Source: Desulfofustis sp. PB-SRB1
GTDB lineage: Bacteria; Desulfobacterota; Desulfobulbia; Desulfobulbales; Desulfocapsaceae
NCBI GenBank assembly: GCA_016722945.1
Contig: JAEQMT010000038.1
Span: forward strand, 186,001 to 250,000
Length of the DNA: 64,000 bases
Direction of reading: 5' to 3'
Shown here: positions 1,002 to 49,585 of the stretch, one piece after another
How positions within the stretch are numbered: position 1 is the first letter of the stretch
Layout of the letters: each line of letters starts with the position of its first letter
The notes under the pieces: model-generated
The model's database searches: none
Seen by the model: only the letters and a program-made list of their open reading frames with translations
What the model was told of the DNA's origin: nothing
Program-made: the position numbers and the translations under genes

Positions 1002-1013
1002 GAGCAGCCTGCC

Positions 1014-2124: not shown

Positions 2125-2140
2125 TTTTATTTATTATTTG

Positions 2141-3010: not shown

Positions 3011-3064
3011 AATCAAGTAAATATGTGAGTAATTTGTGGTAAGCCTTTTTTATACGGAGAATGT

Positions 3065-3286: not shown

Positions 3287-3313
3287 TTTGTATATTATAT
3301 TGATAAAATTAAT

Positions 3314-3404: not shown

Positions 3405-3442
3405 TTTCAAAAAAACACAAATCGTCGCAATAGAGTAGACTA

Positions 3443-3751: not shown

Positions 3752-3826
3752 ATTGCGCATAACCAGGTAATTGTAGCCGACCCACAAAACGATCCGTCTC
3801 CTCAGTTCTTTTCGGTACCGTAGATA

Positions 3827-24993: not shown

Positions 24994-24995
24994 TG

Positions 24996-25086
24996 GGGGT
25001 CAGGTCTTTTATTTTGGTGTTTTTGCCGACTTGGTGACTTGCTGGTACATGTTGAGAAAAAACACCAAAATAAAAGACCTGACCCC
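24996..25086. repeat. REPIN-type inverted repeat, copy 1
   Basis: Two perfect 29-base arms (24996-25024 and 25058-25086) begin GGGGTCAGGTCTTTTATTTT and face each other across a 33-base loop. The GGGTCAGGTCTT… start is that of REP sequences moved by tyrosine-type RAYT transposases; no such gene is in the window. It begins just after aroC and may also terminate transcription. A nearly identical unit lies at 27587-27676. Confidence 0.85.
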
Positions 25087-25113
25087 ATACCTCCTAATCC
25101 ACACTATTTGAAG

Positions 25114-26472
25114 ATGGAAGAGAAAACTCTTGTGAGCAGGCTGGTCGGGGGGGGCGCGTGGTCTTTCTCTTCTAAATTGCTCACCGGTTTTCTTACTATC
25201 GCCCTCACAGGGTATATTGCCAAGCATCTGCCGCCGGAAGAAGTGGGTATCTTCTTTTTCTCGTTCAGCGTGGTTGCCATACTGTCTCTTTTTGCACGAT
25301 TAGGACTGGATCAGCTTGCTATTAAACTCATCGGAGAAGCGCTCGTACAAAAAGACAGGCAAAGAATAACGTCCATTACACTTAAATCCATCGCCCATGT
25401 CTTGACAGTATCACTGGTGCTCTCCTTGGTGCTTGCATCAATGGTTGAGCACCTCGCTGTTTTCGATGGTATCGCCCACGCACGGCTTAAGCTACTCATT
25501 GCGCTCTGGCTTCCTGTTTTTGCCTTGCAGCTTCTCTTTGCCGAGATATTTCGAGCTTTTCACAATATAAAGCTGGCCAGCATCTACTCAGGAGGTACTG
25601 CGTTCGGAGGGTTCCTGGGCAGTCTTTCTATCCCTATGATTTTTGCGGCACTATATATATTAGGCTTTCCTCTCTCGCTCTCTATTCTTATATCTTCGGT
25701 AATTTTTGTGATCTTTATTTCTCTTCTTACCGAGCTGGTCATCATAAGGCGATTACTGCATACACTGGTGTTTGATGGGCCCCAGGAATCATCTGAGAAA
25801 TTTACCTCAATTGATCTGCTGAAGAATGGATTGCCATTGTTTATTGCGATACTGGCAAGCTACAGTTTGATGCATGTGGACGTAATCATTTTGGGCGTGT
25901 ATGGAACAAACGACGAGGTTGCAGTATATGCCGCCACTTCACGCATCGCGAAGCTGGCGTTTTTAGTCGTAATGGTAGTAAATGAAGTAGTGGCACCGTT
26001 GATAGTCCAGTTCAACACGCAGAACAGAAAATCTCGGCTCGAAGCGGTTATGCGAGGATCGGCAACTTTGGCTACGTACTCCTCACTTATAGTGTCATTT
26101 GTGTTCATCTTTTTTGCGGAAAAATTGCTGCAACTGATCTATGGTGACTTTTATACGGCGGGATCAAGCATTCTGGTTATTCTGGGAGTGGGCCTTCTTT
26201 TTAGTTCTTTTTTGGGTTCCGGCAGTTATGCGATGAATCTTATGGGGTATGCGAAAGTTAGAATGGTTATTTCGTTTGTAACAACCTTCGTGGCAATTGT
26301 GATGTGTGTCTTCGCGGCGCAGCACCTCGGGCCCGAGGCCGTGGCCCTGGTGATAGCGATGGCGTGGGTGGCGCAGAATCTCGCATCAAACATTTTCCTG
26401 TATAAAGTCGAGGGGATACGTACCCACGCGTTTTTTGTAGTCAGACGCCGCGAGCTACGTAAATTATTGTAG
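25114..26472 (+). CDS. Polysaccharide flippase (Wzx/RfbX-like, MOP superfamily)
   Basis: A 452-residue integral membrane protein with about 12-14 membrane helices and the typical N-terminus SRLVGGGAWSFSSKLLTGF. It fits lipid-linked oligosaccharide flippases used for O-antigen, capsule or exopolysaccharide. The ATG at 25114 is used because an earlier in-frame ATG (25039) lies inside the REPIN repeat. The stop is at 26470-26472 and a family B repeat starts at that point. Codon use is more AT-rich than the host's. It neighbours a sulfotransferase and no glycosyltransferase, so the wider polysaccharide operon is absent here. Confidence 0.85.
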   Translation: MEEKTLVSRLVGGGAWSFSSKLLTGFLTIALTGYIAKHLPPEEVGIFFFSFSVVAILSLFARLGLDQLAIKLIGEALVQKDRQRITSITLKSIAHVLTVSLVLSLVLASMVEHLAVFDGIAHARLKLLIALWLPVFALQLLFAEIFRAFHNIKLASIYSGGTAFGGFLGSLSIPMIFAALYILGFPLSLSILISSVIFVIFISLLTELVIIRRLLHTLVFDGPQESSEKFTSIDLLKNGLPLFIAILASYSLMHVDVIILGVYGTNDEVAVYAATSRIAKLAFLVVMVVNEVVAPLIVQFNTQNRKSRLEAVMRGSATLATYSSLIVSFVFIFFAEKLLQLIYGDFYTAGSSILVILGVGLLFSSFLGSGSYAMNLMGYAKVRMVISFVTTFVAIVMCVFAAQHLGPEAVALVIAMAWVAQNLASNIFLYKVEGIRTHAFFVVRRRELRKLL

Positions 26473-26608
26473 AGAACTTTGAAAAATGGCTTTTCCATCC
26501 ACCTTCGGTGTTGTTCAGGAAGTTTTATCCTGACTATATCAGCCAGGCATTCATTAAAACTTCTCTCATGCCTTGAAAAAGAACGAAAATTTTCATTTTC
26601 AAGGCTCT
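26471..26608 (+). repeat. Repeat family B, copy 1
   Basis: A 138-base element. Ends AGAGAACTTTGAAAAATGG and ATTTTCAAGGCTCT are imperfect inverted repeats. Interior marks shared with other B copies are TTTTATCCTG, the motif CATGCCTTGAAAAAGAACGA, and TTTTCATTTTC. It abuts the flippase stop codon. No coding capacity. Confidence 0.75.
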
Positions 26609-26647
26609 TTGTAGTAAAAAATCTGATAAATTTTCAAAGGATCTATA

Positions 26648-27448
26648 ATGGTAAGAATATGGAATTTTTTCCTTGAAAACATAGAAAGATATCGCAAGAT
26701 TGGTGATGGAGATATCCTAGTTTATACGATGGGAAAAGTCGGGTCAAGTTCGATCTTTAATAATCTAAATAGAGCTTACCAGACTCATAACCTAGACATG
26801 GAATCGCCGTCAAAATATTTTGCGTCCCGGTATTCTCGAAGTATTTTAAGACAAAGTGCTGAAATGGCTCGGTGGAAGCTCTTGCACTGGGCCTTTTCAC
26901 GCCGTACGGTTGATTGCAACAAGAGAAAAATAATTACAATTGTAAGAGATCCGATAGCAAGAAATGTATCTGCATATTTTGAGACTCTCAGCCTCTCTCA
27001 GCTTCCAGAAAGAGAATATCTTGAAGACGATTTTTTTGTATTTACGAATCACTTTGTGCCTTTGTTGTGGTTTGACATCGAGTTCAAAAGGAATTTACAT
27101 GTAGACGTGTACAAACATCCGTTCAACAAATCGGAAGGTTATACGATTATCGATGATTCGAATGTCTCGATTTTGATTATCCAGCTGGAGAAGTTGAATG
27201 GGCTTGAACAGGTGATTCAAGAATTTCTCGGTGACCCTACTTTTTGTTTAGGCTCAAAGAGTTCGGCAAACATGTCTCATGATAAATGGTATGCTGACCC
27301 ATACAAAGAGATGAAAGAAGGCTTGCAGTTGCCGAAACAATACGTGGAACTGATGTACTCATCGACATATACACACCATTTTTACTCTGCCGAGCAGATC
27401 TCCGCTTTCGAGAATCGATGGGTTGAGCATGGGACAAGGCAGATATGA
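26648..27448 (+). CDS. Sulfotransferase-like capsular polysaccharide protein
   Basis: A 266-residue protein. Its nucleotide-binding loop VYTMGKVGSSSIFNNL and the second motif TIVRDPIARNVSAYFETL match sulfotransferases that use PAPS and the putative capsular polysaccharide synthesis family that shares this fold. It would add a sulfate to a sugar, probably on the polymer exported by the neighbouring flippase. No strong ribosome-binding site is seen; AAAGGATCTATA precedes the ATG. The gene is AT-rich and lies between two repeat B sequences and inside the REPIN pair, which suggests it came in as a unit. Confidence 0.75.
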   Translation: MVRIWNFFLENIERYRKIGDGDILVYTMGKVGSSSIFNNLNRAYQTHNLDMESPSKYFASRYSRSILRQSAEMARWKLLHWAFSRRTVDCNKRKIITIVRDPIARNVSAYFETLSLSQLPEREYLEDDFFVFTNHFVPLLWFDIEFKRNLHVDVYKHPFNKSEGYTIIDDSNVSILIIQLEKLNGLEQVIQEFLGDPTFCLGSKSSANMSHDKWYADPYKEMKEGLQLPKQYVELMYSSTYTHHFYSAEQISAFENRWVEHGTRQI

Positions 27449-27586
27449 GGGAGCCTTGAAAATGAGAATTCCAAGGGCAGGGGGTCAAATCTTTTTCCTT
27501 GACACACAACAAGAACTCTCCGGTACGCCCGGTGTAGCGGCTGATTGGCATATCCCACACTCTAGGGTAATAGGGTCAGGGTAATA
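27449..27586 (+). repeat. Repeat B end fragment plus REP-like pieces
   Basis: GGGAGCCTTGAAAATGAGAA (27449-27468) is one end of family B. It is followed by GGGGGTCAAATCTTTTTCC (27481-27499), which looks like a REP fragment of another type, and then repeated AGGGTCAGGGTAATAG pieces. This is a debris zone directly after the sulfotransferase stop. Confidence 0.6.
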
Positions 27587-27676
27587 GAGTCAGGTCTTTT
27601 GTTTTGGTGTTTTATCTCAGATTGTACCAGCAAGTTAACAAGTCTACAAAAACACCAAAATAAAAGACCTGACCCC
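27587..27676. repeat. REPIN-type inverted repeat, copy 2
   Basis: Arms start GAGTCAGGTCTTTTGTTTTG at 27587 and end with CCAAAATAAAAGACCTGACC at 27675. They are the same design as the unit after aroC, with a few changes in the left arm. The two copies bracket the flippase and sulfotransferase genes. Confidence 0.85.
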
Positions 27677-27782
27677 ACACTTCCGAAATAATCATAGCGT
27701 GGTCGGTGCAGGCGCATTACCGTGAAAGACTTTAACGAGTCTATTTCAGATGGAAGAAGAGCAGTATCACGACTAAACCGCC

Positions 27783-29825
27783 ATGCAAACCCGGATCAGT
27801 GAAATTCTCGACCGCCTGTCGCCGCCGGTGGGCCTGTTGCTGCTGCTTATGTCGGTGGCAATCGGTGCCGGTACCGGTTTTGCCGCGGTGGTGTTTATCA
27901 AGCTGATTGCCGCCATCCAGAACCTGGGCTACACCGTGTTGCCCGAATTGCTTCCGGTGCTGGGCACATGGGTGTATCTCATCGTTCCGGTGATCGGTGG
28001 GTTGCTGGTGGGGCCGCTTATCCTGTTTGCCCAGGAGGCCAAGGGACACGGGGTGCCCGAGGTAATGCAGGCGCTTATCGTGCGCGGCGGCCGCATTCGG
28101 GCGCGGGTGGCGGCTGCCAAGATCGTTGCCTCGGCCTTGTGCATCGGCACCGGCGGTTCGGCCGGGCGCGAGGGTCCGATCGTTCAGGTAGGCTCGGCGC
28201 TTGGTTCCAGTCTTGGCCAGATTCTCCGTCTCTCGGACGACCGTATCCGTAACCTGGTGGGCTGCGGGGCGGCGGCGGGGATTGCCGCCACCTTCAACGC
28301 ACCCATCGCCGGGGTGGTGTTTGCCATCGAGGTGTTGATGGGCAACCTGCAGGTGCGCTCGTTCGGCAACGTGGTGATCGCCGCCGTTTCCTCCTCCATC
28401 GTCAGCCGCTTGATGCTTGGCGCGGAGCCGGCCTTTTCGGTGCCCATCTACCGGCTGGAATCGCCCACTGAGTTGATTTTCTATCTGCTGCTGGGGATTC
28501 TTTCCGCCCTGGTGGGGATCATGTTCATCCGCATGCTGAACCGGGCCGAGATTGTTTTTGACAACTGGTCTTTCCCGCAGATCTACAAACCGGCCATCGG
28601 CGCGGTGCTGCTGGGAATTATCGGCATGGGGTTCATGTATTTGCCGGCCGCCCACCATTCGCCGATGCCCTTCATGTACGGCTCCGGTTTCGAATTTATC
28701 GAAGAGGTGGTGCAGGGTGGCGGTTCTTTTTATCTGCTGCTCCTACTCGTCTTTCTCAAGCCGCTGGCAACCTCGTTTACCCTGGGCTCCGGCAATTCCG
28801 GCGGGGTGTTCGCACCATCACTGTTTATCGGCGCCATGCTTGGCGGCTGTCTCGGCATCCTCTTTGAGCAATACCTCCCCGACATAACCGGCAGCGCCGG
28901 CGCCTATGCCCTGGTGGGAATGGCGGCGCTGTTTGCCGCCACCGCGCGGGCGCCGCTCACCGCCATGCTCATCGTCTTTGAAATGAGCAACGATTACCAT
29001 ATGATCCTGCCGCTCATGGTGGCCACGATCACCGCCTCATATTTCGCCCAGTGGCTGCATCCGGAATCTATTTATACCATCAAACTGGCCAAGCGGGGCA
29101 TTCGTTTTTTTGAGGGCCGGGATATGGATGTGATGCAGGGGGTCAAGGTGGAAGAGGTGATGCGAACCCGTTTTGTGTCGATCAACAAGGATCGTTCGGT
29201 GGCCGAACTTATGGCCCTGTTTCAGGAAACAAACCTGCTGGGGTTTCCGGTGGTCACCGGTGAAAACAGTTTGTGGGGTATCATTACCCTGCAGGACGTA
29301 CATCGTTCGCAGGCGCTTGACTCCTTTAATCCCAGGGAAATGAAGGTGGCTGATCTGGCCACCGAAGGGCCCATCGCGGTCTATCCCGACGAGCCTGTCT
29401 GGGTGGCTATTCAAAAGATGTCGCCGCGTGATCTGGCCCGCCTGCCGGTGGTGGCCCGGGATGGTTCCATGCGGCTGGTGGGGATGATCAGCCGCAGCGA
29501 CGTCCTGCGTGCATACGATGTCGGGGTTGTCCGCAAACAGCGGGGCCGGCTGGAGGATCAGCAGACCACCCTGCGCTCTTCACAGGGTACCGGTTTTGTC
29601 GAATTTGTCCTCAACGAGGAGGATCCCTGCTGCTACAGCCAGGTGAAGGATCTTGCCCTGCCGCCCCACGTCAACCTCGTTTCCATCAAGCGGGAGGGCA
29701 ATATCATCGTGCCTCGCGGCCGTCATCAACTGGAGCCGGGCGATGTCCTCACCATGTTCGGCCGGCTGGAAGAGATGAAAAACCTGAAAAAGGTGCTGAA
29801 CAGCCGCCCCGCCGCTGCCAGCTGA
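27783..29825 (+). CDS. ClC-family chloride channel/transporter with CBS and RCK-C domains
   Basis: A 680-residue protein. The ClC core (residues 1-430) shows GKGHGVPEV, GTGGSAGREGPIVQ with the gating Glu, and GSGNSGGVFAPSLF. Two CBS domains follow (about 455-570), including VTGENSLWGIITLQDVHRS and the second VPVVAR-like unit. The last 80 residues form an RCK-C (TrkA-C) domain ending in PGDVLTMFGRLEEMK. ClC proteins move chloride, fluoride or nitrate; the extra domains point to control by nucleotides or ligands. It is a single-gene unit with its own start after a REPIN. Confidence 0.93.
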   Translation: MQTRISEILDRLSPPVGLLLLLMSVAIGAGTGFAAVVFIKLIAAIQNLGYTVLPELLPVLGTWVYLIVPVIGGLLVGPLILFAQEAKGHGVPEVMQALIVRGGRIRARVAAAKIVASALCIGTGGSAGREGPIVQVGSALGSSLGQILRLSDDRIRNLVGCGAAAGIAATFNAPIAGVVFAIEVLMGNLQVRSFGNVVIAAVSSSIVSRLMLGAEPAFSVPIYRLESPTELIFYLLLGILSALVGIMFIRMLNRAEIVFDNWSFPQIYKPAIGAVLLGIIGMGFMYLPAAHHSPMPFMYGSGFEFIEEVVQGGGSFYLLLLLVFLKPLATSFTLGSGNSGGVFAPSLFIGAMLGGCLGILFEQYLPDITGSAGAYALVGMAALFAATARAPLTAMLIVFEMSNDYHMILPLMVATITASYFAQWLHPESIYTIKLAKRGIRFFEGRDMDVMQGVKVEEVMRTRFVSINKDRSVAELMALFQETNLLGFPVVTGENSLWGIITLQDVHRSQALDSFNPREMKVADLATEGPIAVYPDEPVWVAIQKMSPRDLARLPVVARDGSMRLVGMISRSDVLRAYDVGVVRKQRGRLEDQQTTLRSSQGTGFVEFVLNEEDPCCYSQVKDLALPPHVNLVSIKREGNIIVPRGRHQLEPGDVLTMFGRLEEMKNLKKVLNSRPAAAS

Positions 29826-39980: not shown

Positions 39981-41072
39981 CTACGTTTGTCCGAAGGTGT
40001 AGCGCAGGTAGGAGGCGCAGATCCCTTCCTGGGCCACCATGCAGGGGCCGATGGGGTTTCTGGTGGAGCAGGAGATGCCGAAGGCGGGACATTCGGTGGG
40101 CAGACATTTGCCCGATATGATCTCGGCGCAGCGGCACTCGAGAGGCTCCTCACCCTGCTGAATCCGGATATTGAACCGCTTGGTGGCATCGTAGAGGGAA
40201 AGTTCATCACGAATGACAAAGCCGCTGCCGGCAATACTGCCCAAGCCGCGCCAGTCGCTGTCGGTGGCAAAAAACACCTCGGAAAGCATTTTCTGCACGC
40301 GCGTTGTTTCCGCGTTCGAGGTGATACCGGCAAACGGATTATCCCGGTCCGGTTGGGCCGATCGCAGTTGGTCGACAATGGTGATCAACCCCTTTAAGAT
40401 GTCGTTGACCCCAAAACCGGTGACCGCGCAGGCAAGATGGTGCCGGCGCGCCAGTTGGGCGTACGCCTCGGTGTCGGTAATGGCCTCCACATGGGCGGAG
40501 CAGAGCAGACCGCGGATGTTGAGCTCCGGATCTTTGAAAAGATTGTCAAGCGATGGCGGCAGCAGCCTGATGGAGGGGATTACACAAAAGTTCTCGATCC
40601 CCTCTGAGGCCGCTTCCAGAATTGCTTCAGCCACATCGGGGGCGGCGCCCTCAAAACCCACCGCGGTAAAGACCACGATTTTATCGGGGTAACGCCGGGC
40701 CAGATCCAGGGCCTCCATGGGGGCGTCCACCACCTCCACCCATACCCCGGCATCCCGCAATTCTTCTAATGAACTGGTGCTGCCCGGCACCCGCAGCAGA
40801 TCGTCGCAGGTGGCGGTAATAACGTCTGGCTGCATGGCGATTTTGACATAGGCGTCGATGTGGCCTTCCGGCATAACGCACACCGAACAGCCGGGTCCTG
40901 GTACCAGTTCCAGCTGTTCCGGCACCATTTCACTGATACCGAACTTCAGTATGGTACGGATCTGCGTACCGCAGACCACCATCACTCGTACCGGGCGGTC
41001 GATGAGGGTGGACAGACGGGCAAGTAAGGCCTCATCGGCCTGCTGCCCCATATGTAAATCAGGCCCTTTCAT
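39981..41072 (-). CDS. hypD: Hydrogenase formation protein HypD
   Basis: A 363-residue [4Fe-4S] protein that, with HypC, builds the Fe(CN)2CO part of the [NiFe] site. Signatures are VMVVCGTQ, GPGCSVCVMPEGHIDAY, VTGFGVNDILKGL and the C-terminal CRCAEIISGKCLPTECPAFG. It closes the hydrogenase cluster on the minus strand, 84 bases after the small Cys-rich gene. hypC, hypE and hypF are not in the window, so the rest of the maturation set is elsewhere. The length matches the family. Confidence 0.96.
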   Translation of the reverse strand: MKGPDLHMGQQADEALLARLSTLIDRPVRVMVVCGTQIRTILKFGISEMVPEQLELVPGPGCSVCVMPEGHIDAYVKIAMQPDVITATCDDLLRVPGSTSSLEELRDAGVWVEVVDAPMEALDLARRYPDKIVVFTAVGFEGAAPDVAEAILEAASEGIENFCVIPSIRLLPPSLDNLFKDPELNIRGLLCSAHVEAITDTEAYAQLARRHHLACAVTGFGVNDILKGLITIVDQLRSAQPDRDNPFAGITSNAETTRVQKMLSEVFFATDSDWRGLGSIAGSGFVIRDELSLYDATKRFNIRIQQGEEPLECRCAEIISGKCLPTECPAFGISCSTRNPIGPCMVAQEGICASYLRYTFGQT

Positions 41073-41155: not shown

Positions 41156-41404
41156 TCATGCTTCAGCCTGTTTTTGCATTTCTTTGTACTGCTCGGTCTC
41201 ACGTACTTTCTCCGCCTCGACCGCTTCAATATCGGCTCTAGTAAGATGATACAAACCACAGGCCGGACACGAGCCGTCGAAGGTGTCGCCCACGGCGCGG
41301 GCACGCAACTCATCAATGGTCATGTGGTCCATATGGCCGCAGGCACCACTGGGATTTTCGGCCCTGACTTTTATCCGGTTCGGGTGTTTTTCCGCTTCAC
41401 TCAT
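41156..41404 (-). CDS. Small Cys-rich zinc-ribbon-like protein
   Basis: An 82-residue protein. The ATG at 41404 follows GGAGG at 6 bases; a longer frame upstream is not needed. The motif GACGHMDHMTIDELRARAVGD precedes DTFDGSCPACGLYHLT, so one Cys with two nearby His faces a CPACG pair, as in a small zinc ribbon. The C-terminus is a charged helix. I do not recognise a family. Its place between mvhA and hypD in a minus-strand operon suggests a helper for assembling or regulating the hydrogenase. Confidence 0.75.
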   Translation of the reverse strand: MSEAEKHPNRIKVRAENPSGACGHMDHMTIDELRARAVGDTFDGSCPACGLYHLTRADIEAVEAEKVRETEQYKEMQKQAEA

Positions 41405-41490
41405 GGTATTCCTCCATAGTGGATATGGACGTCTCAATCCGGCCATCTTCCCGATGCCTCTAGCAAGATAGCCGGATCAACCAGTTCAAA

Positions 41491-42939
41491 TCAGTTTTTG
41501 ATGACATCAACTAGTTTACCATCGGCGTCAACGATTTCAACTGCCAAGGGGATTCCGCCATCCAGGCGGTGCGTGGCGCATGACATTCACGGGTCATAGG
41601 CGCGTACGGCCATCTCCACCTTGTTGAGTATTCCCTGGTCATAAACGCCATCTTTGATCAGGGCGGTGGCCGCCTGTTTGACGCTCATGTTCATGGGCCC
41701 GATGTTATGGGTGGTACCGACGATGAGATTGGCACTCTCGATACAACCGTTGGCATCGGTAGTGTAATCGTGAATCAGTGTACCGCGCGGTGCCTCCAGC
41801 ACACCAACACCGCGGCCGGCCTGAGGTGTAACCTTGGCGCGGACATCGGTATCGGTAATGCCTTCCCAGTTAAGCAACTCGATGGTGCGCTCACAGGCAT
41901 AAATCAATTCAATCAACCGGGCATAGTGATAGAGCAGGGTCGCCTGGGCGGGTCGTCCGAAGGCGGCGCGAAACTCTTCCAGGGCCTCCTGCGCCTTGGG
42001 CGTTGCCATCTGGTCGCAGACGTTGATGCGGGCCAGGGTATTGGCCCGGTAGATGCCTTTGGGTTCGCTCAGATCCATGGAGAACCCTTCGTTCCAGGAT
42101 TTAGCGTACGGCATCTTGCCGTAACTCCAGGACTCCACATGCTCGCCCAGATAATCAAGATAGTCAACACCCTCAAAGTCAACGTATGAGCCGTCGGCCT
42201 TCATCAACCGCTGCTTGCCGTCATAGATCCGAAACGATCCATCGGCACGATCAACGGTGCCCAGGAACCCGGTCTTGATAACGCCCAACTCGCTGATGAC
42301 ATCGAGGTACTTGCTGAACACGTTGTTCTTGGCAAAATCCAGGGCAAAAAGAGAGAAATCAAGCAGGGTCTGGGTATCCTTGAGCAGTTCTACCCGCTCC
42401 GCTTCGCGCATGGGCTTGGAAAAGCCGCCGGTAACCGCGGCGATGGGGTGAATCGCCTTGCCGGCAAACCGATCCAGCATCATCTGCCCCAATTGCCGCA
42501 TCTTCACTACCTGAGTGGCAAGCTCCGGCGCCGCCTTCACCACGCCGATGACGTTGCGCACCGAGTAATCGCTGTCGGGCCCCAGAACGAAATCGGGCGC
42601 CGCCAGGAAAAAGAAGTGCAGAATCTTGTCGTTGATGTGGGCCATCACCTGCAGCAGTTCCCGCAGCTTATGGCCGGTGGGCGTCGGAGTAACGTCAAAG
42701 CAGCCATCCACCGCCTTGTTGGAGGCAAGGTGATGCATCCACGGGCAGATTCCGCAAATGCGGTTGACGATCCGGGGAACCTCTTCGGCCGGTCTGCCCT
42801 CGATAAATTTTTCGAACCCGCGCAGCGACATCAGGTTCATCCGTGCATCTTCGACGTTACCACTCTCGTCAAGATGCACGGTGATACGAGCGTGCCCCTC
42901 AATGCGGGTTACCGGTTGTATATTTAGTATCTTACCCAT
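41491..42939 (-). CDS. mvhA: [NiFeSe] hydrogenase large subunit MvhA, selenoprotein
   Basis: A 482-residue large subunit of the F420-non-reducing (Mvh-type) hydrogenase that holds the Ni-Fe site. The N-terminal ligand motif is RICGICPWMHH. The frame is broken at 41587-41589 by TGA after RAYDP, then continues MSCATHRLDGG to a true stop at 41491-41493. The C-terminal motif is therefore DPUxxCATH with selenocysteine in place of the usual first Cys. A hairpin follows the TGA by 17 nt. The 23 residues after CATH would be removed by the maturation protease encoded upstream. Start follows GGAGG; one base separates it from the mvhG stop. Confidence 0.96.
41555..41569 (-). promoter_or_regulatory. Bacterial SECIS element of mvhA
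   Basis: On the minus strand, CCGCC-TGGAT-GGCGG forms a perfect 5-bp stem with a 5-nt loop, 17 nt after the UGA. Loop position and GG match the SelB-binding hairpin of bacterial selenoprotein mRNAs. Confidence 0.85.
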
Positions 42940-42940
42940 C

Positions 42941-43885
42941 TTATGCCTCCTCCTTCGCGGCGACCTTCTTGGGTCGTAAATTACCGTGTGCGCCGCTGAA
43001 CCGTTGAATGGAACGACGATCGACCACGGAAGTGAAATCGATGCCGTTACTTGCCAGGGCGTTCATCATATCAAGCAATTGATTGCCATGCGGACGTACC
43101 GAACCGAAACAGCCCCGGCACGGTACCCGCGCCTCGATGCAGGAAGGTGCGCCCCGTTTGGCGCAGCCGGCCGCGGTCACCGGGCCCATGCACATATAGC
43201 CCTGCTCGAGCAGGCAGCGCATTTCACTGATCGGCTTATCCGGATCGAACACGGCATTTTCCACAAACCGCTTGACCGTATTTACCGCCCCTTTGCCCTC
43301 CCGTTTGGTGGGACAGGTATCGCAGACACTCTTGGTGGGCAGCACCGGATCGCGGTTCTCCAGCAGGGCCATGATGGCCTCGGCGATGTGGGCCGGGTTG
43401 GGCGGACAGCCGGGCAACCGTAAATCAATTTTGACCTTTTCATCCAGGGCGTAGGTGCGATCCAGCATCTTCGGCACCACCTCATCGGGCCGGGTGGCGC
43501 CGGCATCGGTGGAGGAAGTCTGATAGATTTCATCAAAACTCGCGGCTGAATCCTGGCCGTTCATCAGGGCCGGGATCCCCCCCTGGGTGGCGCAGGAGCC
43601 AAGGGCGATCAGCACCTTGCATTTTTTGCGCATCTCTTCGAGCACCTCCATGTGCTCGTCATTGGAAACCCCGCCGCTGATAATGCCGACGACGGCCTCG
43701 GGGATATTGAGATGCTCACCTTCATCCCCGCATTGACCATAATATTTGTGATCCATGATCACCGGTGCATGCACGATATCGAGATGCTCGGTGATAATCG
43801 GAACCAGGTCCTCACCGATATTCAATATTGCGATCTCACAGCCGGAGCATGAACTCAGCCATTCTAATGCCGTGGTAACTCCCAT
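42941..43885 (-). CDS. mvhG: Mvh-type hydrogenase small subunit MvhG
   Basis: A 314-residue small subunit with Fe-S clusters that move electrons from the Ni-Fe site. Cluster Cys motifs are LSSCSGCEIA at the N-terminus, ALGSCATQGG, LPGCPPNP and the C-terminal GAPSCIEARVPCRGCFG. The start follows AAAGGAGG. It lies between mvhD and mvhA as in methanogen and sulfate-reducer mvhDGA operons. No twin-arginine signal is present, in line with a cytoplasmic complex. The tail LRPKKVAAKEEA is unremarkable. Confidence 0.96.
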   Translation of the reverse strand: MGVTTALEWLSSCSGCEIAILNIGEDLVPIITEHLDIVHAPVIMDHKYYGQCGDEGEHLNIPEAVVGIISGGVSNDEHMEVLEEMRKKCKVLIALGSCATQGGIPALMNGQDSAASFDEIYQTSSTDAGATRPDEVVPKMLDRTYALDEKVKIDLRLPGCPPNPAHIAEAIMALLENRDPVLPTKSVCDTCPTKREGKGAVNTVKRFVENAVFDPDKPISEMRCLLEQGYMCMGPVTAAGCAKRGAPSCIEARVPCRGCFGSVRPHGNQLLDMMNALASNGIDFTSVVDRRSIQRFSGAHGNLRPKKVAAKEEA

Positions 43886-43896
43886 GTCATCCTCCT

Positions 43897-44310
43897 TTAC
43901 GCTGCCTGCGCTTCGTTGATGGGACCAAGTTTACGTACCCGCTCGGTCATTTCGGTAACCGCCTTGACGAACTTGTCCGGCTCGGCGGAAGAAACCCAGG
44001 AAATCCCGAAGCGGTCATTATCATATCCAAAATCTTCCAGCAGCTCGACGATCATGTTGGAGCGGCTCATTGCTTTGTAATTACCATCCAGGTAATGGCA
44101 TTCGCCCAGGTGTCAGCCCAGGACGAGGACACCGTCCGCCCCCTGGCTGAAGGCGTTGAGGACAAACTCCGGATGTACCATCCCGGAGCACATCACCCGG
44201 ATAATCCGCACATTTGGCGGATACTGCATCCGCGCCGTGCCGGCGAGATCGGCTGCCGCATAGGAACACCAGTTGCAGCAGAACGCGATTATCTTCGGTT
44301 CATAACTCAT
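43897..44310 (-). CDS. mvhD: MvhD, electron-transfer subunit, selenoprotein
   Basis: A 137-residue [2Fe-2S] protein linking the hydrogenase to HdrA. It starts [20 protein letters not shown] after AAGGAG. After GADGVLVLG an in-frame TGA (44113-44115) is followed by [19 protein letters not shown] and so on to a stop at 43897-43899. The family motif is GCHPGDCHY, so the TGA replaces the first Cys: G-U-H-LGECHY. A hairpin starts 16 nt after the TGA. Selenocysteine at this site is known in some methanogen MvhD/VhuD proteins. Read as a stop, the gene would lose its second half, which contains conserved motifs. Confidence 0.95.
44080..44096 (-). promoter_or_regulatory. Bacterial SECIS element of mvhD
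   Basis: ATTACC-TGGAT-GGTAAT on the minus strand: a 6-bp perfect stem and the same 5-nt loop as in mvhA, 16 nt after the UGA. Confidence 0.85.
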
Positions 44311-44338
44311 TGATTATCTCCTTATTATAAGTGCCGGC

Positions 44339-47300
44339 TCAGACGGCAAGCGCCGCTTCCACCTGGCTGGCGATTTGTTCCATGGTATAGCCCTGCACCG
44401 CGACCCCGCGCTTGGGACAGGTCCCCTGGCAGAGTCCACACCCTTTACACTGGGCCTTGTTGACGGTGATGTACTTGTGCACCATGCCATCCTCTCCCAC
44501 CGGATGTTCGGCCAGATCAATGGCGTGGTAGGGGCAGACATCGATACACAGGGCACAGCCGTCACAATTCTCCAGAATCGGCTGGGCCTTGACCGCGTCA
44601 AGGCTTACCGAGGTTTTGGAAAGCAGGGTGGCGGCCCGGGCCGAGGCGGCTAGTGCTTGGTTGACGGATTCTTCTACAGGTTTGGGATAATGAGCCAGAC
44701 CGGCGAGAAACATACCATCGGTGGCGCAGTCTACCGGACGCAGCTTGGCATGTGCCTCCTGGAAAAAACCGTCGCCGTCCAGAGATATCTTGTACAGCTT
44801 GTTGAGCTTTTCGCCGTCGGGATTGGGGACGATGGCCGTAGCCAGCACCACCATATCAGCCTTAATGGCAAGCGGCCGATGCAGAATATGATCCCACACT
44901 TCAACGGAGAGCCGCTTGTTCTCGACACTTACACTGGGTTTGCCGTGCAACTCATAGTTGATGAAGATAACGCCCAGTGCCCGTGCTTTCTTGTAGAGCT
45001 CCTCACGCTGACCATAGGTACGCATGTCGCGGTAGAGGATGTATACCATCCGGGTCGGGTCTTCCTGTTTCAGTGAAATTGCCGATTGCACTGAGTGTGT
45101 GCAGCACACCTTGGAGCAATAGAGGCGATTGCCCTCACGGGAGCCGACACATTGAATGAAGACCACCGATTTGGCATTGGCGGCCCGATGCTCCTTAAGC
45201 TCGAACAGACGGTCGAACTCCAGTGCCGTCACCACATTGGGGATTGAGCCGTAGCCATATTCACTGGGACGCAGGGCGCCGCCGCCGGTGGCGATTACGC
45301 CGACACCGTGTTCAATGGTTTTCTCCAGCCCGTCCTTGGTGGCGATGGTGGATGTGAAATTGCCCACAAAGCCTTTTGCATCAGTGACCTCAAAACCGTG
45401 GTGGACAACGATATTTTCGTTTTTGTGAACCGTATCGATGAGTTTTCTGGTACGATCCTGAATCGACTCACCAGACCAGCTATGGCCCAGCAACAGGGCA
45501 TTGCCGCCCAGCTTGTCGGTTTTTTCCACGAGATTGACGGCAAATCCCTGCTCGGCCATGTTCAGCGCCGCGCTCATGCCGGCAATGCCGCCACCGACCA
45601 CGAGGGCTTTCTGGGTAATCGGCACCGAAATCGGCTCCAGCGATTCCTGCTGATTGACCTTGGCCACCGCCATACGAACCAGATCCTTGGCCTTGGCGGT
45701 AGCGGTGGTGGGATCATTGGAATGCACCCATGAGTTCTGGTTTCTGATATTGGCCATCTCCACCAGGTACTCATTGAGGCCTGCTGATTTGAGCGTCTCG
45801 CGGAAGAGCGGCTCGTGGGTTCGCGGTGTACAGGCGGCTACAACCACGCGGTTGAGCTTCTTTTCCTTGATGATCTGGGTCATCTGCTCCTGGGTATCCT
45901 GGGAGCAGCTGAACAGGTTACGCTCGACATGGCCGACTCCTGGCAGGGTTTCGGCATATGCCGCCACCGCCTCAACATCGACAACGCCTGCTATATTTGA
46001 TCCGCAATGGCATACGAATACCCCGGTATTGGGGGCTTCGCCGCCGACTTCGCGTTGCTTGGGAAAGGTTTTCTCAGCAGTCAATTCACCCCGGGCCGGG
46101 GCCAGGCTGTCGGCCACCGCGGCGGCGGCAGCGGAACCTTCCATGACCGATTGCGGGATATCCTTGGGGCCGGAAAATACACCGCAGGTAAAAATCCCCG
46201 GTTTCGAGGTTGAGACCGGGCTGAAATCAGATGTCGAGGCAAATCCGTCATGAGTCAGGCGGATACCGGCGATGGCACCGAGTTCTTTCACGTAGTCGGG
46301 AATCTGCAGGCCGACGGAAAGCACCACCATATCGAAATACTCCTCGACCTGGCGGCCTTCTTCATTGATGTAGTGGAGCCGTAGATCGCCGCTATCGCCC
46401 TCGGGTTCAACTCCGTGTACCCGGCAGCGGACAAAGCGTACCCCGGCATCACGTTCGGCATTGACATAGTAGCGGTCAAATTCCTTGCCGTGGGTTCGCA
46501 TATCCATCATGAAAATGGAGGTCTGCAGTCCGGCCACGTGATCCTTGGCCATCACCGCTTCCTTGATGGCGTACATACAGCAGACTGACGAGCAGTAGCC
46601 GTTACCGCATTTATGCTCATCACGTGAGCCGACGCATTGCAGAAAGGCGACCTTGGTAACCTCCTTGCCGTCTGATGGACGGTTAAGATGGCCCTCGGTG
46701 GGACCGGAGGCGGAGAGGTAGCGCTCGAACTGCATGGCCGTTACCACGTTTGGATAGCGCCCATACCCCCAGGTCCAGTTTTTAGCCGGATCAAACGTCT
46801 CAAAGCCAGGCGCCAACACGACGGCGCCGACGTTGAGCTGATGCATCTTTTCGGTATCATCGAAATTGACCGCATCGGCGGGACAGACTTTTTCGCAGAA
46901 CCCGCAGGCACCAGGCTTGTTCAGCCGGATACAGTTTACCGGGTCGATCTGATACTTGAGCGGCACCGCCTGGGCGTATTTGACGTATATCGCCTTGCGC
47001 TTGCCGGTGGCCGCATCGTATTCACTGGGGACTTTTTTGGGACATTTAGTGGTACACTCGCCGCAGGCTATGCACTTGTCCATATCCACATAACGTGGAT
47101 GTTCTTTTACGGTTACCTGGAAGTTACCCGCCTCACCGGCAATACCGGTAACTTCACTAAGCGTCATTAACTTGATATTTAAGTGCCGACCGCACTCAAC
47201 CAATTTTGGCGCGATAATTCACATCGAGCAGTCGTTGGTGGGAAAGGTCTTGTCGAGCTGCGCCATGGCGCCGCCGATCGCCCCACTTCGTTCCACCAAG

Positions 47301-47401
47301 TAGACGTAATAACCGGAATCGGCCAGATCCAGGGCCGTCTGTATTCCGGTTATACCACCGCCCACAACCATTACCGAGCCGAGTTTTTTGGTATCCAGCA
47401 T
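44339..47401 (-). CDS. hdrA: Double-length HdrA-like protein, selenoprotein
   Basis: About 1,020 residues. Module 1: FAD site [19 protein letters not shown], then [10 protein letters not shown], an in-frame TGA (47219-47221) and [12 protein letters not shown]. HdrA normally has a Cys here (NDCSMC), so the TGA is read as selenocysteine at residue 61. Ferredoxin motifs [12 protein letters not shown] (near 110) and CGFCEKVCP follow. Module 2 starts near 430 with [10 protein letters not shown] and a second FAD site, [19 protein letters not shown] (near 600). Two C-terminal [4Fe-4S] motifs end it ([24 protein letters not shown]). HdrA proteins bifurcate electrons from H2. Start ATG 47401 follows AAGGAG. 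It would receive electrons from MvhD and pass them to ferredoxin and the HdrCB protein. Confidence 0.95.
47179..47199 (-). promoter_or_regulatory. Bacterial SECIS element of hdrA
   Basis: TTGAGTGC-GGTCG-GCACTTAA on the minus strand: an 8-bp stem with one G-T pair and a GGUCG loop, 19 nt after the UGA. The GGUC loop start is like that of the E. coli fdhF element. Confidence 0.85.
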
Positions 47402-47490
47402 CACTGGTTTCTCCTTTTCTAAATAGTTCTCTCAAAAATATGGGAGCACTCGAAGCGTGTGATCCTCATTCAAGAATCAGTACAGCAGCG

Positions 47491-48981
47491 CTACGATTGC
47501 TCGACTGTCTCCACCTCGGCGCTTTGCTCCTGGCCGGGGTAAATGAGACAATCGGCAACAAGCTCCCAGATATACTTAATCTCGATGCCGAGATCATATT
47601 CCTTGTTGAGCGATTTCAATAACTGGTCACGGCAATTATGGCACGGCGCGATCACCATCTCAGCACCGGTCTCTTTAATCTGCCGGGCCTTGATCCGGCC
47701 ATAGAACACCCGCTCGGGGCCAAAGGGCATGGCCCAGGCGCCGCCGCCGGCACCACAGCAGTAATTGCTCTCGCGATTAGGCTCCATATCCTTGAAGTCA
47801 GGGCACACCGCTTTAGTGATGTCACGCCCTTCTTCGTAATAGGCAACGCCAAAGGCGTTCATGGACTTCCGGCCATAATTGCACGGATCATGGTAGGTGG
47901 TCCGCATGGGGTGTTTGGTGTTGTCGAGCTTTATTTTGCCCTCATTAATATATTCAGTGAGCAGATCAAATACCGACATGATCTTGAACTCGTTGAGTGC
48001 TTCGGGAAACCACTTGTTCAACCCGAACCGGGTTGCATAATAGGCGTGGCCTCATTCTGGCAGGAGCAGCACCTCGCACTTGAGCCGCCGCATGTTGTCG
48101 ACCAATCGTCCGACCACCGTCTTCATGGCCTCGTCATCACCGGAGAACAGTCCCCAATTGACCCCCTCCCAATATTCAGACGGGATGGTCCAGGATTCGC
48201 CGGCGGCGTGAAAAATCCGCCACCAGTACTTCATATCGTCAGGCTCGGCGAAGGGTTCCTTGGAATTGACCGTTACCAGCACGCGGGCGCCGACCTTATC
48301 GATGGGGGTCTTGAAACCTTCCAAACCCTCCTCCACCAGTTCATCACCCAACTCTTCGCAGAGATAAATAAAATCGTCCTTGGGGATACCCAGGTTGTTG
48401 CCGCGCTCCAGGCAGACCGCCACACCTTTATGGATGGGGCCGGGAACCAGGTCGCGCTCGCGCAGGCCGCGCAGTCTGCGCATCAGGGCAAGAATTTTGA
48501 CGCCGGCCGGGCAGGCGTTTTCGCACTTGCCGCACATGGTGCACTTCCAGGGCCAGTTGGTTTTCTTAAGCTCATCCTCCATACCGAGCACCGCCATGCG
48601 CACGATCTTGCGCGGATCGAGCCCGTCAACACCGGCGATGGGGCAAGCGCTGGCGCAGGTGCCGCAGGTCAGACAGGTATCGGCCCAATCGGCATCGGCG
48701 TAGATGGTCTTTTCCATAAAGCCGACTTGCATCGGCTTCGGTTGCTCCTTGTTATCAGCGTAACGCTTTACCTCTTGCAGGTCAACATGGCTGGTGGTCC
48801 GGTAGTGCGGCTCACGACCGAATTTTTCGCAGAGGGCATGGTAATCCTCGAACCTCATAAGATACTTGCGGCCGGGACCTTCCTTGGCGGGAAGGGTGCC
48901 GGCATTGATCCAGTTTCTTATGGTGTTGCGATGGACGCCAAACTCCTCCGCCATTTCGCTGACTCGAAATTCATACATCAT
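47491..48981 (-). CDS. HTH-HdrC-HdrB fusion, heterodisulfide-reductase-like selenoprotein
   Basis: A 496-residue protein with three parts. Residues 1-58 form a MerR/excisionase-type helix-turn-helix (EMAEEFGVHRNTIRNWINAG). Residues 95-170 hold two [4Fe-4S] motifs (CLTCGTCASACP, CTMCGKCENACP) as in HdrC. From 290 onwards lies an HdrB-like CCG domain with YHDPCNYGR, YCCGAGGGAW and APCHNCRDQL. In-frame TGA at 48052-48054 lies in LLLPE-U-GHAYYATRFG, where relatives have Cys in PECGH. A hairpin follows 16 nt later. Read as a stop, the CCG domain would be lost. A DNA-binding fold on an electron-transfer enzyme is unusual; it could instead serve protein contacts. Confidence 0.92.
48019..48035 (-). 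promoter_or_regulatory. Bacterial SECIS element of the HdrCB fusion gene
   Basis: CAACCC-GGTTC-GGGTTG on the minus strand: a perfect 6-bp stem with a 5-nt loop starting GG, 16 nt after the UGA. Confidence 0.85.
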
Positions 48982-49006: not shown

Positions 49007-49585
49007 TTAAATGATCTGCATGCACAACTGACATGCTTCTGAAACGGCGTTTTCCATGGTAGCCGAGAGTCCCGGCTCAATTTCATTGGGAATATATTCT
49101 ATCTGCGCGGCAATTATGGTCACCTTGATACCGGTGTGTTCCTCAAGCTCCTTGAGGAGATTGACGGTGGGAAACTGATGGAGGGAAAAATCATGAATCT
49201 TCTTGGCGGGAATGGCGGCGGAATTGATAAAGAATACCTCTCCCGGGGTCTTATCCGCAAAGTCAACCGCATCGAGTATGATGATGTGGGACGGACGCCC
49301 CTCCTCACTGAGGAGATAATCAAAAAGGTATTCCCGCACCCCGGTCATGGCGTCGATGGCCGTGACCGTGGGCGGCAGATCACCCTTCTGGAGCAGAGCC
49401 TCCACCACCTTGGGGCCGAAGCCGTCGTCCCCCATGAGAAGGTTGCCGCAGCCAAAAATTACGGTCGAATAGCTGGTGTTCAAATTGTGCGCGGTTTCGA
49501 AATTTTCGTTAATTTCACCCACACTACCACCACAATGTAGAGATTTCAACAGTTTTTGTTGCCCATCCTTGAACCATTTGCACAA
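49007..49585 (-). CDS. Hydrogenase maturation protease (HycI/HyaD family)
   Basis: An endopeptidase of up to 192 residues that trims the large-subunit C-terminus after nickel insertion. The signature is VIFGCGNLLMGDDGFGPKVV, followed by DAMTGVREYLFDYLL and ILDAVDFADKTPGE with the metal-binding acidic residues. The His of FSLHQFP completes the site. The true start is uncertain: the longest frame begins at a TTG (49585), but GTG 49522 or a TTG just before the GCGN motif would be more typical. It heads the minus-strand operon and should process the MvhA precursor encoded last but two. Confidence 0.92.
   Translation of the reverse strand: MCKWFKDGQQKLLKSLHCGGSVGEINENFETAHNLNTSYSTVIFGCGNLLMGDDGFGPKVVEALLQKGDLPPTVTAIDAMTGVREYLFDYLLSEEGRPSHIIILDAVDFADKTPGEVFFINSAAIPAKKIHDFSLHQFPTVNLLKELEEHTGIKVTIIAAQIEYIPNEIEPGLSATMENAVSEACQLCMQII

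What the first reader, a model, noticed from the sequence alone, without database searches (positions are those of the whole stretch)
41491..48981. Four selenoproteins in one Hdr-Mvh cluster, each with a matched SECIS hairpin
MvhA, MvhD, HdrA and the HdrCB fusion all contain an in-frame UGA at a position where relatives have a conserved Cys (DP-U-MSCATH, G-U-HLGECHY, NDCSM-U-IIAPK, PE-U-GHAYY). Each UGA is followed 16-19 nt later by a perfect or near-perfect stem with a 5-nt loop (UGGAU, UGGAU, GGUCG, GGUUC). The identical geometry in four genes is strong evidence for true recoding. Standard gene callers would split all four genes.
Basis: partly seen in the sequence, partly recalled or inferred. 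Interest (0 to 1): 0.85.

Follow-up and report, generated by a model that had tools for sequence, protein, structure and literature searches.

The report
Self-regulating four-selenoprotein hydrogenase operon
Four enzyme genes in a bacterium related to sulfate reducers read a stop codon as selenocysteine, as already known for this gene cluster, but one of the four enzymes also carries a DNA-binding domain and matching repeat sites lie in front of related clusters, so the enzyme may switch its own genes on and off.

Summary
GlpC/HdrCB, HdrA, MvhD and MvhA each have an in-frame UGA followed by the described stem-loop, and selA, selB, selC and selD are in the genome. Across 91 related loci the stem follows every UGA scored (66/66, 63/63, 46/46, 55/55) but fewer Cys codons (GlpC 4/21, HdrA 14/22, MvhD 7/28), and synonymous codons are frozen in the stem-loop only in Sec genes. 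This four-selenoprotein operon was described in 2006 (PMC1794560, passages).

Beyond the finding: (1) GlpC/HdrCB carries an N-terminal winged HTH whose best structural match is BldC. A 9-bp direct repeat, TGCACAA-NN-TGCACAA, lies upstream of operons with this fusion (<=2 mismatches in 46/83; 0/36 for HTH-less paralogues). BldC binds 9-bp direct repeats. I read GlpC as a self-regulating, DNA-binding selenoprotein (about 0.58, inferred). (2) GlpC, HdrA and MvhD lose Sec in a nested order and together in about four lineages, while MvhA keeps Sec in 55/55 readable loci. The window's own operator is degenerate (2 and 3 mismatches).

The parts
47491..48981 (-). GlpC/HdrCB-like Fe-S oxidoreductase, 496 aa, selenoprotein (U310); N-terminal winged HTH + HdrC-like [4Fe-4S] domain + HdrB-like CCG domain
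   Evidence: translation; Pfam HTH_17 (res 6-46, E 7.3e-9), Fer4_8, CCG; HdrC chains of Hdr complexes; EtfD/LutA/HdrB folds
48820..48981 (-). BldC/MerR-like winged helix-turn-helix domain of GlpC (residues 1-54)
   Evidence: excisionase-family model over its cut-off; VIA-align best rows BldC 6amk_B Z 6.2, 51 residues, rmsd 2.3 and 6ama_A Z 5.9
48052..48054 (-). UGA = Sec310 of GlpC
48019..48035 (-). bSECIS-type stem-loop of glpC (CAACCC-GGTTC-GGGTTG)
44339..47401 (-). HdrA, 1020 aa, double-length, selenoprotein (U61, in the DCSMU motif)
   Evidence: HdrA2/HdrA models (best E 4.7e-292, below that model's curated cut-off of 1100 bits)
47219..47221 (-). UGA = Sec61 of HdrA
47179..47199 (-). bSECIS-type stem-loop of hdrA (TTGAGTGC-GGTCG-GCACTTAA)
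43897..44310 (-). MvhD (FrhD/VhuD-type), 137 aa, selenoprotein (U66)
   Evidence: PF02662 E 4.2e-56
44113..44115 (-). UGA = Sec66 of MvhD
44080..44096 (-). bSECIS-type stem-loop of mvhD (ATTACC-TGGAT-GGTAAT)
42941..43885 (-). MvhG, hydrogenase small subunit, not a selenoprotein
41491..42939 (-). MvhA, [NiFeSe] hydrogenase large subunit, 482 aa, selenoprotein (U451); true stop is the UGA at 41493-41491
   Evidence: VhuA model E 2.6e-143 and VhuU model E 4e-9, both below their curated cut-offs; PF00374 over its cut-off
41587..41589 (-). UGA = Sec451 of MvhA
41555..41569 (-). bSECIS-type stem-loop of mvhA (CCGCC-TGGAT-GGCGG)
49007..49483 (-). HycI/HyaD-type hydrogenase maturation protease, first gene of the operon; start at 49483 inferred (the ORF extends to 49585)
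49570..49585 (+). upstream operator-like direct repeat TGAACCATTTGCACAA (2 mismatches to TGCACAANNTGCACAA); the only match with up to 2 mismatches in the 64-kb window
   Evidence: chance expectation 0.42 per 64 kb; for relatives
49476..49491 (-). second, degenerate repeat CGCACAATTTGAACAC (3 mismatches) at the hycI start, at the place where many relatives carry TGCACAA
41156..41446 (-). small conserved protein with a CG...HMT...CPxCG pattern, found in the 13 genomes that carry HTH-GlpC and in 2 others of 297
39981..41072 (-). HypD hydrogenase maturation protein, same strand downstream

Best explanation
This is a Desulfobulbales-type copy of the known glpC-hdrA-mvhD-mvhG-mvhA operon, with four true selenoproteins. 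Each UGA is decoded as Sec by SelB and tRNA-Sec guided by a bacterial SECIS hairpin just downstream (shown as far as sequence can). The products most likely form an Hdr-Mvh type complex: H2 is split at the [NiFeSe] site of MvhA, electrons pass through MvhG and MvhD to the FAD of HdrA, which bifurcates them to ferredoxin and to a disulfide-type acceptor at GlpC/HdrCB (inferred from the families). The GlpC subunit also has an N-terminal BldC-like winged HTH. I propose that it binds 9-bp direct repeats (TGCACAA-NN)n upstream of the operon as head-to-tail oligomers and controls the operon according to its own redox or assembly state, as trigger enzymes such as PutA do (recalled comparison). Shown: the domain, its conservation, and the repeats concentrated at this operon. 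Inferred: the binding, its sign, and the signal. My confidence is about 0.97 for Sec recoding, 0.85 for the Hdr-Mvh role and 0.58 for the self-regulation; the number below is for the first two parts.
For: Sec: selA, selB, selC and selD above family cut-offs in G000; stems after all UGAs scored and after fewer Cys codons; pairing 95-100% in register against 3-52% when slid by 1-2 nt; synonymous freezing only in Sec genes; family matches. HTH and operator: HTH_17 hit; of the 13 operons found by whole-protein search, 12 have the HTH (L056 lacks it); BldC is the top VIA-align row and ranks 2-3 in Foldseek; exact half-site TGCACAA in 64 of 83 upstream regions, shuffled mean 6.7, maximum 12 of 50; same-strand spacing 9 in 35 + 16 pairs against under 1 expected; direct repeat <=2 mismatches 46/83 and <=1 mismatch 30/83, pattern read backwards 0/83 and 0/83; no exact half-site and no repeat within 2 mismatches in 450 nt upstream of 36 HTH-less GlpC genes; in 1.28 Mb of loci 40 sites (<=1 mismatch) upstream of the operon against 2 elsewhere; the repeat (<=1 mismatch) stays upstream of glpC in operons without hycI (7/11) and without mvhGA (8/11); BldC binds 9-bp direct repeats head-to-tail (PMC5859096, passages).
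Against: Single-sequence fold z-scores are weak. No Rfam family matches the hairpins. The HdrA stem persists in 14 of 22 Cys genes, so there it is partly forced by the protein or a remnant. The stems vary too little for strong covariation. The window's own operator is degenerate: 2 mismatches at 49570-49585 (34 of 100 shuffled windows have at least one such match), 3 at 49476-49491; a PWM put the best minus-strand site of that region at rank 98 of 127944, and not at either repeat; the two <=1-mismatch sites in the window's genome lie elsewhere. 37 of 83 upstream regions have no direct repeat within 2 mismatches and 19 lack an exact half-site. Genome-wide the repeat (<=1 mismatch) is no commoner in the 13 HTH genomes (36 matches, 2.8 each; 9 at this operon) than in 17 controls (44, 2.6 each), and in both sets it exceeds the pattern read backwards (12 and 12), so the backward control understates the background. 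Inverted spacings occur as well (-+3: 34 pairs, 5.8 expected; -+12: 18 pairs). Foldseek gave no hit with E <= 0.001 for the HTH alone, and Z 6.2 is moderate. No binding or expression data exist here.
Confidence: 0.9

Rival explanations
1. The repeats upstream are sites of another regulator (Rex, a CRP/FNR-type protein such as HcpR, or an unknown HTH protein), and the HTH on GlpC is a structural or protein-contact module.
For: TTGTG/CACAA ends resemble Rex and CRP/HcpR half-sites (recalled). Some loci have inverted spacings (-+12: 18 pairs; -+3: 34 pairs against 5.8 expected). A MerR-like fold need not bind DNA: one VIA row is the CbpA-CbpM complex (3ucs, Z 3.7).
Against: The most enriched arrangement is direct repeats with 9-bp period (35 + 16 pairs against under 1). 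The repeat follows the HTH-GlpC gene in operons that lack hycI or mvhGA. It was not found upstream of 36 HTH-less GlpC genes (about 2-3 half-sites would be expected by chance). The segment G15-I25 is nearly invariant in 34 sequences, also in the 11 rows that were not fetched by an HTH peptide pattern.
Confidence: 0.34
2. The four UGAs are ordinary stops: split or decaying genes, or sequencing errors.
For: Table-11 gene calling does split all four.
Against: The UGA is conserved at the same codon in 66, 63, 46 and 55 loci with downstream coding intact. selABCD is present. Synonymous constraint sits downstream of the UGA.
Confidence: 0.01
3. The joint Cys states are not switches but replacement of the whole glpC-hdrA-mvhD block by a separate Cys-type lineage.
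For: Several genomes carry both a Sec operon and a Cys copy (L122+L138, L113+L146, L103+L127, L135+L173, and G255 with L056+L051). The Desulfobulbus-type CCC rows are one clade of 11.
Against: On the HdrA tree CCC rows arise in about four places, and L138/L146 and L125/L130/L108/L133 nest inside Sec clades. The tree is of HdrA only, by the quick method, with warnings on long branches (L105, L160, L166, L059, L056).
Confidence: 0.35
4. The repeats are a translation or RNA element at the hycI start rather than a DNA operator.
For: In the main Desulfocapsaceae group the half-site sits just before, or overlaps, the likely hycI start codon.
Against: Repeats also lie further upstream in the opposite orientation (11 loci have both orientations, in 9 of them 112-164 nt apart), and in front of glpC where hycI is absent.
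Confidence: 0.07

Closest known systems
glpC-hdrA-frhD-frhG-frhA five-gene, four-selenoprotein operon of Syntrophobacter fumaroxidans and Desulfotalea psychrophila (PMC1794560; review PMC13188914)
   Same: Gene order, the same four Sec families, Sec in GlpC in a UGH motif (review), Deltaproteobacteria-type hosts (passages)
   Different: The terms 'helix-turn-helix' and 'upstream' do not occur in the 2006 main text. Here a BldC-like HTH is fused to GlpC, an operator-like repeat is upstream, and hycI, a small CPxCG protein and hypD flank the operon. Whether the two published operons also have the HTH was not checked
Desulfobacterium autotrophicum HRM2 MvhA2DG-HdrA1 and HdrD4 selenoproteins (PMC2702500)
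   Same: Sec in HdrA, MvhD, a HdrCB-type protein (HdrD4) and an Mvh hydrogenase; the authors already suggest functional replacements under selenium limitation (passages)
   Different: No HTH fusion or operator is mentioned in the passages read; its neighbourhood includes HysAB
Methanococcus Vhu/Hdr (VhuU/VhuA, VhuD, HdrA with Sec)
   Same: Sec in the homologous MvhA, MvhD and HdrA families (review table)
   Different: Archaeal SECIS lie in untranslated regions and VhuU is a separate peptide (recalled); the archaeal operons lack the Sec GlpC
HdrABC-MvhAGD complex of methanogens (PDB 5odc and relatives)
   Same: HdrC and HdrB parts of GlpC match 5odc/8rvu chains
   Different: HdrB and HdrC are separate chains there; no HTH (recalled); HdrA here is double-length
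BldC of Streptomyces (PDB 6amk, 6ama; PMC5859096)
   Same: MerR-like winged HTH; 9-bp direct-repeat sites of varying copy number
   Different: BldC is a free-standing 68-residue HTH; here the HTH is the N-terminal domain of a 496-aa selenoprotein electron-transfer subunit; the site sequence differs
Trigger enzymes such as PutA (recalled, not tested)
   Same: Metabolic redox enzyme with its own DNA-binding domain that controls its operon
   Different: PutA uses a ribbon-helix-helix and FAD; here an Fe-S/Sec subunit of a putative Hdr complex

Membership tests
Bacterial selenoproteins | In-frame UGA at a position that is Cys in homologues | tested here: met
   GlpC, HdrA and MvhD: Cys in 21, 22 and 28 relatives. 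MvhA: 55 of 55 readable loci have U, so Cys there rests on general knowledge of [NiFe] hydrogenases
Bacterial selenoproteins | Hairpin downstream of UGA with loop 16-37 nt away and G among the first two loop bases (rule recalled; 16-33 nt were searched) | tested here: met
   Stem in 66/66, 63/63, 46/46, 55/55; G rule in 66/66, 63/63, 46/46, 54/55
Bacterial selenoproteins | selA, selB, selC, selD in the genome | tested here: met
   All above cut-off: selB C6, tRNA-Sec C43, selA C19, selD C1 with its own TGA
Bacterial selenoproteins | Sec shown in the protein | not testable with these tools
   needs 75Se labelling or mass spectrometry
glpC-hdrA-frhD-frhG-frhA operon | Five genes in this order on one strand with Sec in all but frhG/mvhG | tested here: met
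[NiFeSe] hydrogenases | Sec at the first position of the C-terminal U-x-x-C motif of the large subunit | tested here: met
   DPUMSCATH; VhuU model matches residues 434-460 (E 4e-9, below its cut-off)
Flavin-based electron-bifurcating Hdr-Mvh complex | HdrA with FAD domain plus MvhD, MvhG, MvhA and HdrB/HdrC-like parts | tested here: met
   Pfam/NCBIfam hits; HdrC/HdrB structures
Flavin-based electron-bifurcating Hdr-Mvh complex | Measured bifurcation of electrons from H2 | not testable with these tools
   enzyme assay needed
BldC family | MerR-like winged HTH fold | tested here: met
   6amk_B Z 6.2, 51 residues, rmsd 2.3; a moderate Z, with Xis and MerR proteins following at about 5
BldC family | Protein consists of the winged HTH alone, no other domain | tested here: not met
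   HTH is residues 1-54 of 496; hence a BldC-like domain, not a BldC
BldC family | Binds 9-bp direct repeats head-to-tail | not testable with these tools
   9-bp direct repeats are present upstream in relatives; binding itself not tested

The most novel reading that the evidence does not exclude
The HdrCB/GlpC subunit is a DNA-binding selenoprotein and an autoregulator. Its BldC-like HTH coats (TGCACAA-NN)n arrays in front of its own operon, and in some species in front of a second hydrogenase operon (seen in L160) or another hdrA-like gene (seen in G211), so that the redox or assembly state of an H2-oxidising Hdr complex sets its own expression and possibly selenium demand.
Probability: 0.58. 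Interest if true: 0.75.

Novelty: new variant of a known kind. Interest (0 to 1): 0.58.

Why it matters
The four selenoproteins are a further case of a published operon. If the HTH reading holds, it would be a hydrogenase/Hdr electron-transfer subunit that is itself a transcription regulator, giving a direct, testable link between H2-derived electron flow and gene control in relatives of sulfate reducers. The joint loss of Sec at three Fe-S-side positions with retention of Sec at the Ni site also gives a natural series for asking what Sec does in each subunit.

Tried and rejected
Single-sequence RNA folding did not separate the hairpins from shuffles, so I did not rely on it. Rfam gave one irrelevant weak hit. 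Covariation was sought but the stems are nearly invariant, so synonymous constraint was used instead. A palindromic reading of the upstream motif (GCAYTGT-N4-ACARTGC) was tried first and dropped: it fits mainly one group of loci, while 9-bp direct repeats occur in all the groups that have repeats. Exact 5-mer dyads gave little. A search of the glpC-hdrA spacer found mainly a ribosome-binding-site-like string. A 29-bp PWM did not pick out the window's own repeats. A sigma-70 scan of 10 upstream regions gave no consistent placing. In the genome search with up to 1 mismatch most sites are background: the 13 HTH genomes give 36 matches, 9 of them at this operon, 6 exact, of which 5 lie at this operon; the 17 control genomes give 44 matches, 3 exact; the pattern read backwards gives 12 in each set. 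Paper searches for a published HTH-Hdr fusion found none: searches gave 0 papers, one search gave 1 paper that looks unrelated from its listing (PMC7760498), and the 6 papers listed hold no 'trigger enzyme'; the library holds open-licence PMC papers only. Papers seen as passages: PMC1794560, PMC13188914, PMC2702500, PMC5859096; all others as search listings.

18 of 91 loci lacked a complete gene set or a long HdrA match and are not in the tree. 8 of 91 lacked 350 nt upstream, or the HTH, and are not among the 83 upstream regions. One HdrA UGA was too near a locus end for the hairpin count (63 of 64). L105 is an outlier (HdrA 49% identity, long branch) but was kept. The 80 named loci were fetched with two peptide patterns, one of which lies in the HTH, so the share of loci with the HTH (92 of 94) is biased; the 13 operons found by whole-protein search are not so biased (12 of 13 have it). 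The second-target genes in L160 and L189 were named by eye from ORF starts, without a family search.

Full report
CHECK. On the minus strand the genes run hycI - glpC/hdrCB - hdrA - mvhD - mvhG - mvhA - small protein - hypD. Reading TGA as a residue gives full-length GlpC/HdrCB (496 aa, U310), HdrA (1020 aa, U61), MvhD (137 aa, U66) and MvhA (482 aa, U451). The genome (G000, 4.69 Mb, 97.6% complete) holds selB, tRNA-Sec, selA and selD above family cut-offs. tRNA-Sec lies about 15 kb beyond the window on the same contig, and selD itself has an in-frame TGA.

IS IT MORE THAN CHANCE. Taken alone, no: fold z-scores are -1.80, -1.84, -0.54 and +0.29, and 2 to 15% of in-frame positions of the operon genes have a hairpin as good. 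The comparison settles it. I gathered 94 loci: the window, 13 operons among the 48 GlpC regions taken from a phylum-wide search of 297 genomes and the best 80 of 146 from the genome-contig scan. After three duplicates were removed 91 remain. The hairpin follows 66/66, 63/63, 46/46 and 55/55 UGAs (GlpC, HdrA, MvhD, MvhA), but 4/21, 14/22 and 7/28 Cys codons (GlpC, HdrA, MvhD) and 0 of 3 Ser codons (GlpC). A shuffle of synonymous codons lowers the mean stem score from 9.25 to 4.35, 8.35 to 5.16, 7.11 to 4.22 and 8.03 to 6.37 in Sec genes; in Cys genes it does not, or barely (3.64 to 4.03, 5.81 to 5.27, 2.58 to 3.17). Per locus this shuffle is significant (p < 0.05) in 61/66, 39/63, 9/46 and 4/55, so MvhD and MvhA rest on conservation across loci. 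The pairs are formed in 96.2, 94.8, 98.2 and 100% of cells in register and 3 to 52% when slid by 1-2 nt. Among pairs of loci with the same residue, the same codon is used in 86, 84, 99 and 90% inside the stem-loop, 44-48% outside; in Cys genes 45, 46 and 54% inside, 42-47% outside. That is selection on the RNA, only where the codon is UGA.

WHAT IT IS. The nearest GlpC rows are Desulfobulbaceae MAGs L101 (87%) and L119 (84%) and Desulfofustis MAGs (82-83%); the nearest HdrA row is Desulfofustis (81%). The host is most likely a Desulfobulbales bacterium (inference). Families: MvhA resembles VhuA and VhuU models, HdrA the HdrA2 and HdrA models, MvhD FlpD/VhuD, MvhG VhuG; the Pfam hits are over their cut-offs, most of the NCBIfam equivalog models are not. 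GlpC matches HdrC chains of solved Hdr complexes and EtfD, LutA and HdrB folds. The likely reaction is H2 oxidation with bifurcation to ferredoxin and to a disulfide-type acceptor; this rests on family knowledge.

WHAT IS KNOWN. Zhang and colleagues (PMC1794560, passages) described this operon, glpC-hdrA-frhD-frhG-frhA with four selenoproteins, in Syntrophobacter fumaroxidans (three copies) and Desulfotalea psychrophila. [quoted passage not shown] The D. autotrophicum genome paper (PMC2702500, passages) reports related Sec proteins. As given, the finding is a new member of a known kind.

NEW 1: SEC STATES. Of 73 loci with complete GlpC, HdrA and MvhD, the states are UUU 45, CCC 16, UUC 8, SCC 2, CUC 1, SUC 1. 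They are perfectly nested: HdrA is never Cys unless GlpC and MvhD have lost Sec, and GlpC never loses Sec unless MvhD has. MvhA is Sec in 55 of 55 loci where the residue can be read; in 5 more it cannot. On a quick HdrA tree the fewest changes are 6, 4 and 7 for GlpC, HdrA and MvhD, and the triple-Cys state appears in about four places. Four genomes carry both a Sec operon and a Cys copy by record title (L122+L138, L113+L146, L103+L127, L135+L173); three of these Cys copies have no mvhGA in the 10 kb after glpC and the fourth is cut by its contig end. G255 (L056 Sec, L051 Cys) is a fifth, and BP8.bin43 (L159 Sec, L157 HdrA Cys with GlpC unreadable) may be a sixth. Whether this is stepwise switching or block replacement is open. 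A selenium-independent backup, as suggested for D. autotrophicum after Methanococcus (PMC2702500), is a natural reading.

NEW 2: A DNA-BINDING-TYPE DOMAIN ON GLPC. Residues 6-46 match HTH_17 (E 7.3e-9, over its cut-off) and, below cut-off, MerR; the excisionase-family model is over its cut-off. Of the 13 operons found by whole-protein search 12 have the domain, L056 lacks it. In all, 92 of 94 loci have it, but 80 of these were fetched with a peptide pattern set that includes the HTH, and L159 is cut by its contig end. In the 297-genome search at least 13 genomes have the fused form, while most other GlpC matches start near residue 80-100 (the match list was cut). The segment G15-I25 is nearly invariant in 34 sequences, 11 of which were not fetched by the HTH pattern. 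A model of the domain (mean pLDDT 85.8) aligns best with BldC bound to DNA (6amk_B Z 6.2, 51 residues, rmsd 2.3; 6ama_A Z 5.9), followed by Xis and MerR proteins at about 5. Foldseek ranks RacA first and BldC second and third, with E-values of 0.02-0.03.

NEW 3: A REPEAT ARRAY UPSTREAM. In 83 upstream regions the half-site TGCACAA occurs exactly in 64 (shuffled mean 6.7, maximum 12 of 50 shuffles), and same-strand pairs 9 bp apart are the most enriched spacing (35 + 16, under 1 expected). The direct repeat TGCACAA-NN-TGCACAA is found with <=1 mismatch in 30 and <=2 in 46 of 83 regions; the same pattern read backwards gives 0 and 0. Over 1.28 Mb of loci there are 40 sites (<=1 mismatch) upstream of the operon and 2 elsewhere, both before what looks like a second hydrogenase operon in L160. 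In 450 nt upstream of 36 GlpC genes without the HTH, L056 among them, there is no exact half-site and no repeat with <=2 mismatches (L056 has one half-site about 680 nt upstream). Where hycI is absent the array stands before glpC itself (<=1 mismatch in 7 of 11; with hycI 23 of 72), and it is present where mvhG/mvhA are absent (8 of 11; where present 14 of 55). So it goes with HTH-GlpC rather than with the hydrogenase genes. In 13 whole genomes with HTH-GlpC, 5 of 6 exact repeats lie upstream of this operon and the sixth stands before what looks like another hdrA gene; 17 control genomes have 3 exact repeats. With 1 mismatch allowed the genome totals do not differ (2.8 against 2.6 per genome) and exceed the backward pattern in both sets, so it is the position, not the total, that is telling. 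Eleven loci carry repeats in both orientations, 112-164 nt apart in nine. BldC was shown to bind 9-bp direct repeats of varying number head-to-tail (PMC5859096, passages). Domain and site were found independently and fit each other.

THE WINDOW ITSELF is a weak example. Its upstream region has the same two places but degenerate: 2 mismatches at 49570-49585, which is the only match with <=2 mismatches in 64 kb (chance expectation 0.42, 34 of 100 shuffles have one), and 3 mismatches at 49476-49491. A PWM did not pick either out.

MODEL. GlpC that is free, or in one redox state, binds the arrays and controls (probably represses) the operon; engagement in the Hdr-Mvh complex or reduction of its clusters releases it. 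Sign and signal are guesses. Rivals are listed; the main one is that another regulator uses the repeats. Interest is set for the sum: the Sec part alone would be about 0.3. On checking, the genome-wide totals and the fetch bias were added; they leave my odds for the self-regulation at 0.58.

Noticed in passing
window 41156-41446 (-): A small protein (CG...GHMT...CPxCG.HL pattern, no Pfam or NCBIfam match) follows the operon in 64 of the 91 loci, many others being cut, and is found in the 13 genomes with HTH-GlpC and 2 others of 297; it remains in several loci where mvhGA is lost.
   Followed up: partly
L122+L138, L113+L146, L103+L127, L135+L173, L056+L051, perhaps L159+L157: Five or six genomes hold both a Sec operon and a Cys copy of glpC-hdrA(-mvhD): a possible selenium-independent backup.
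   Followed up: partly
L160, about 8.3 kb downstream of hycI: Two exact copies of the 9-bp direct repeat in opposite orientations stand before a second operon that, by eye, looks like a periplasmic [NiFe] hydrogenase with a cytochrome b.
   Followed up: partly
L189 (G211:C12:25000-32000), site at 3133: An exact repeat array stands before what looks, by eye, like another hdrA gene in a genome with HTH-GlpC: a possible second target.
   Followed up: partly
G000:C1:254885-255808: selD of the window's genome has an in-frame TGA, so it is probably itself a selenoprotein.
   Followed up: no
L108, L133, L166: GlpC has Ser at the Sec/Cys position in three loci, so a chalcogen other than oxygen is not strictly required there.
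   Followed up: no
window 1-4000 and 24001-28000: G+C drops to 0.45 and 0.49 against 0.53-0.60 in the other 4-kb steps of the window.
   Followed up: no
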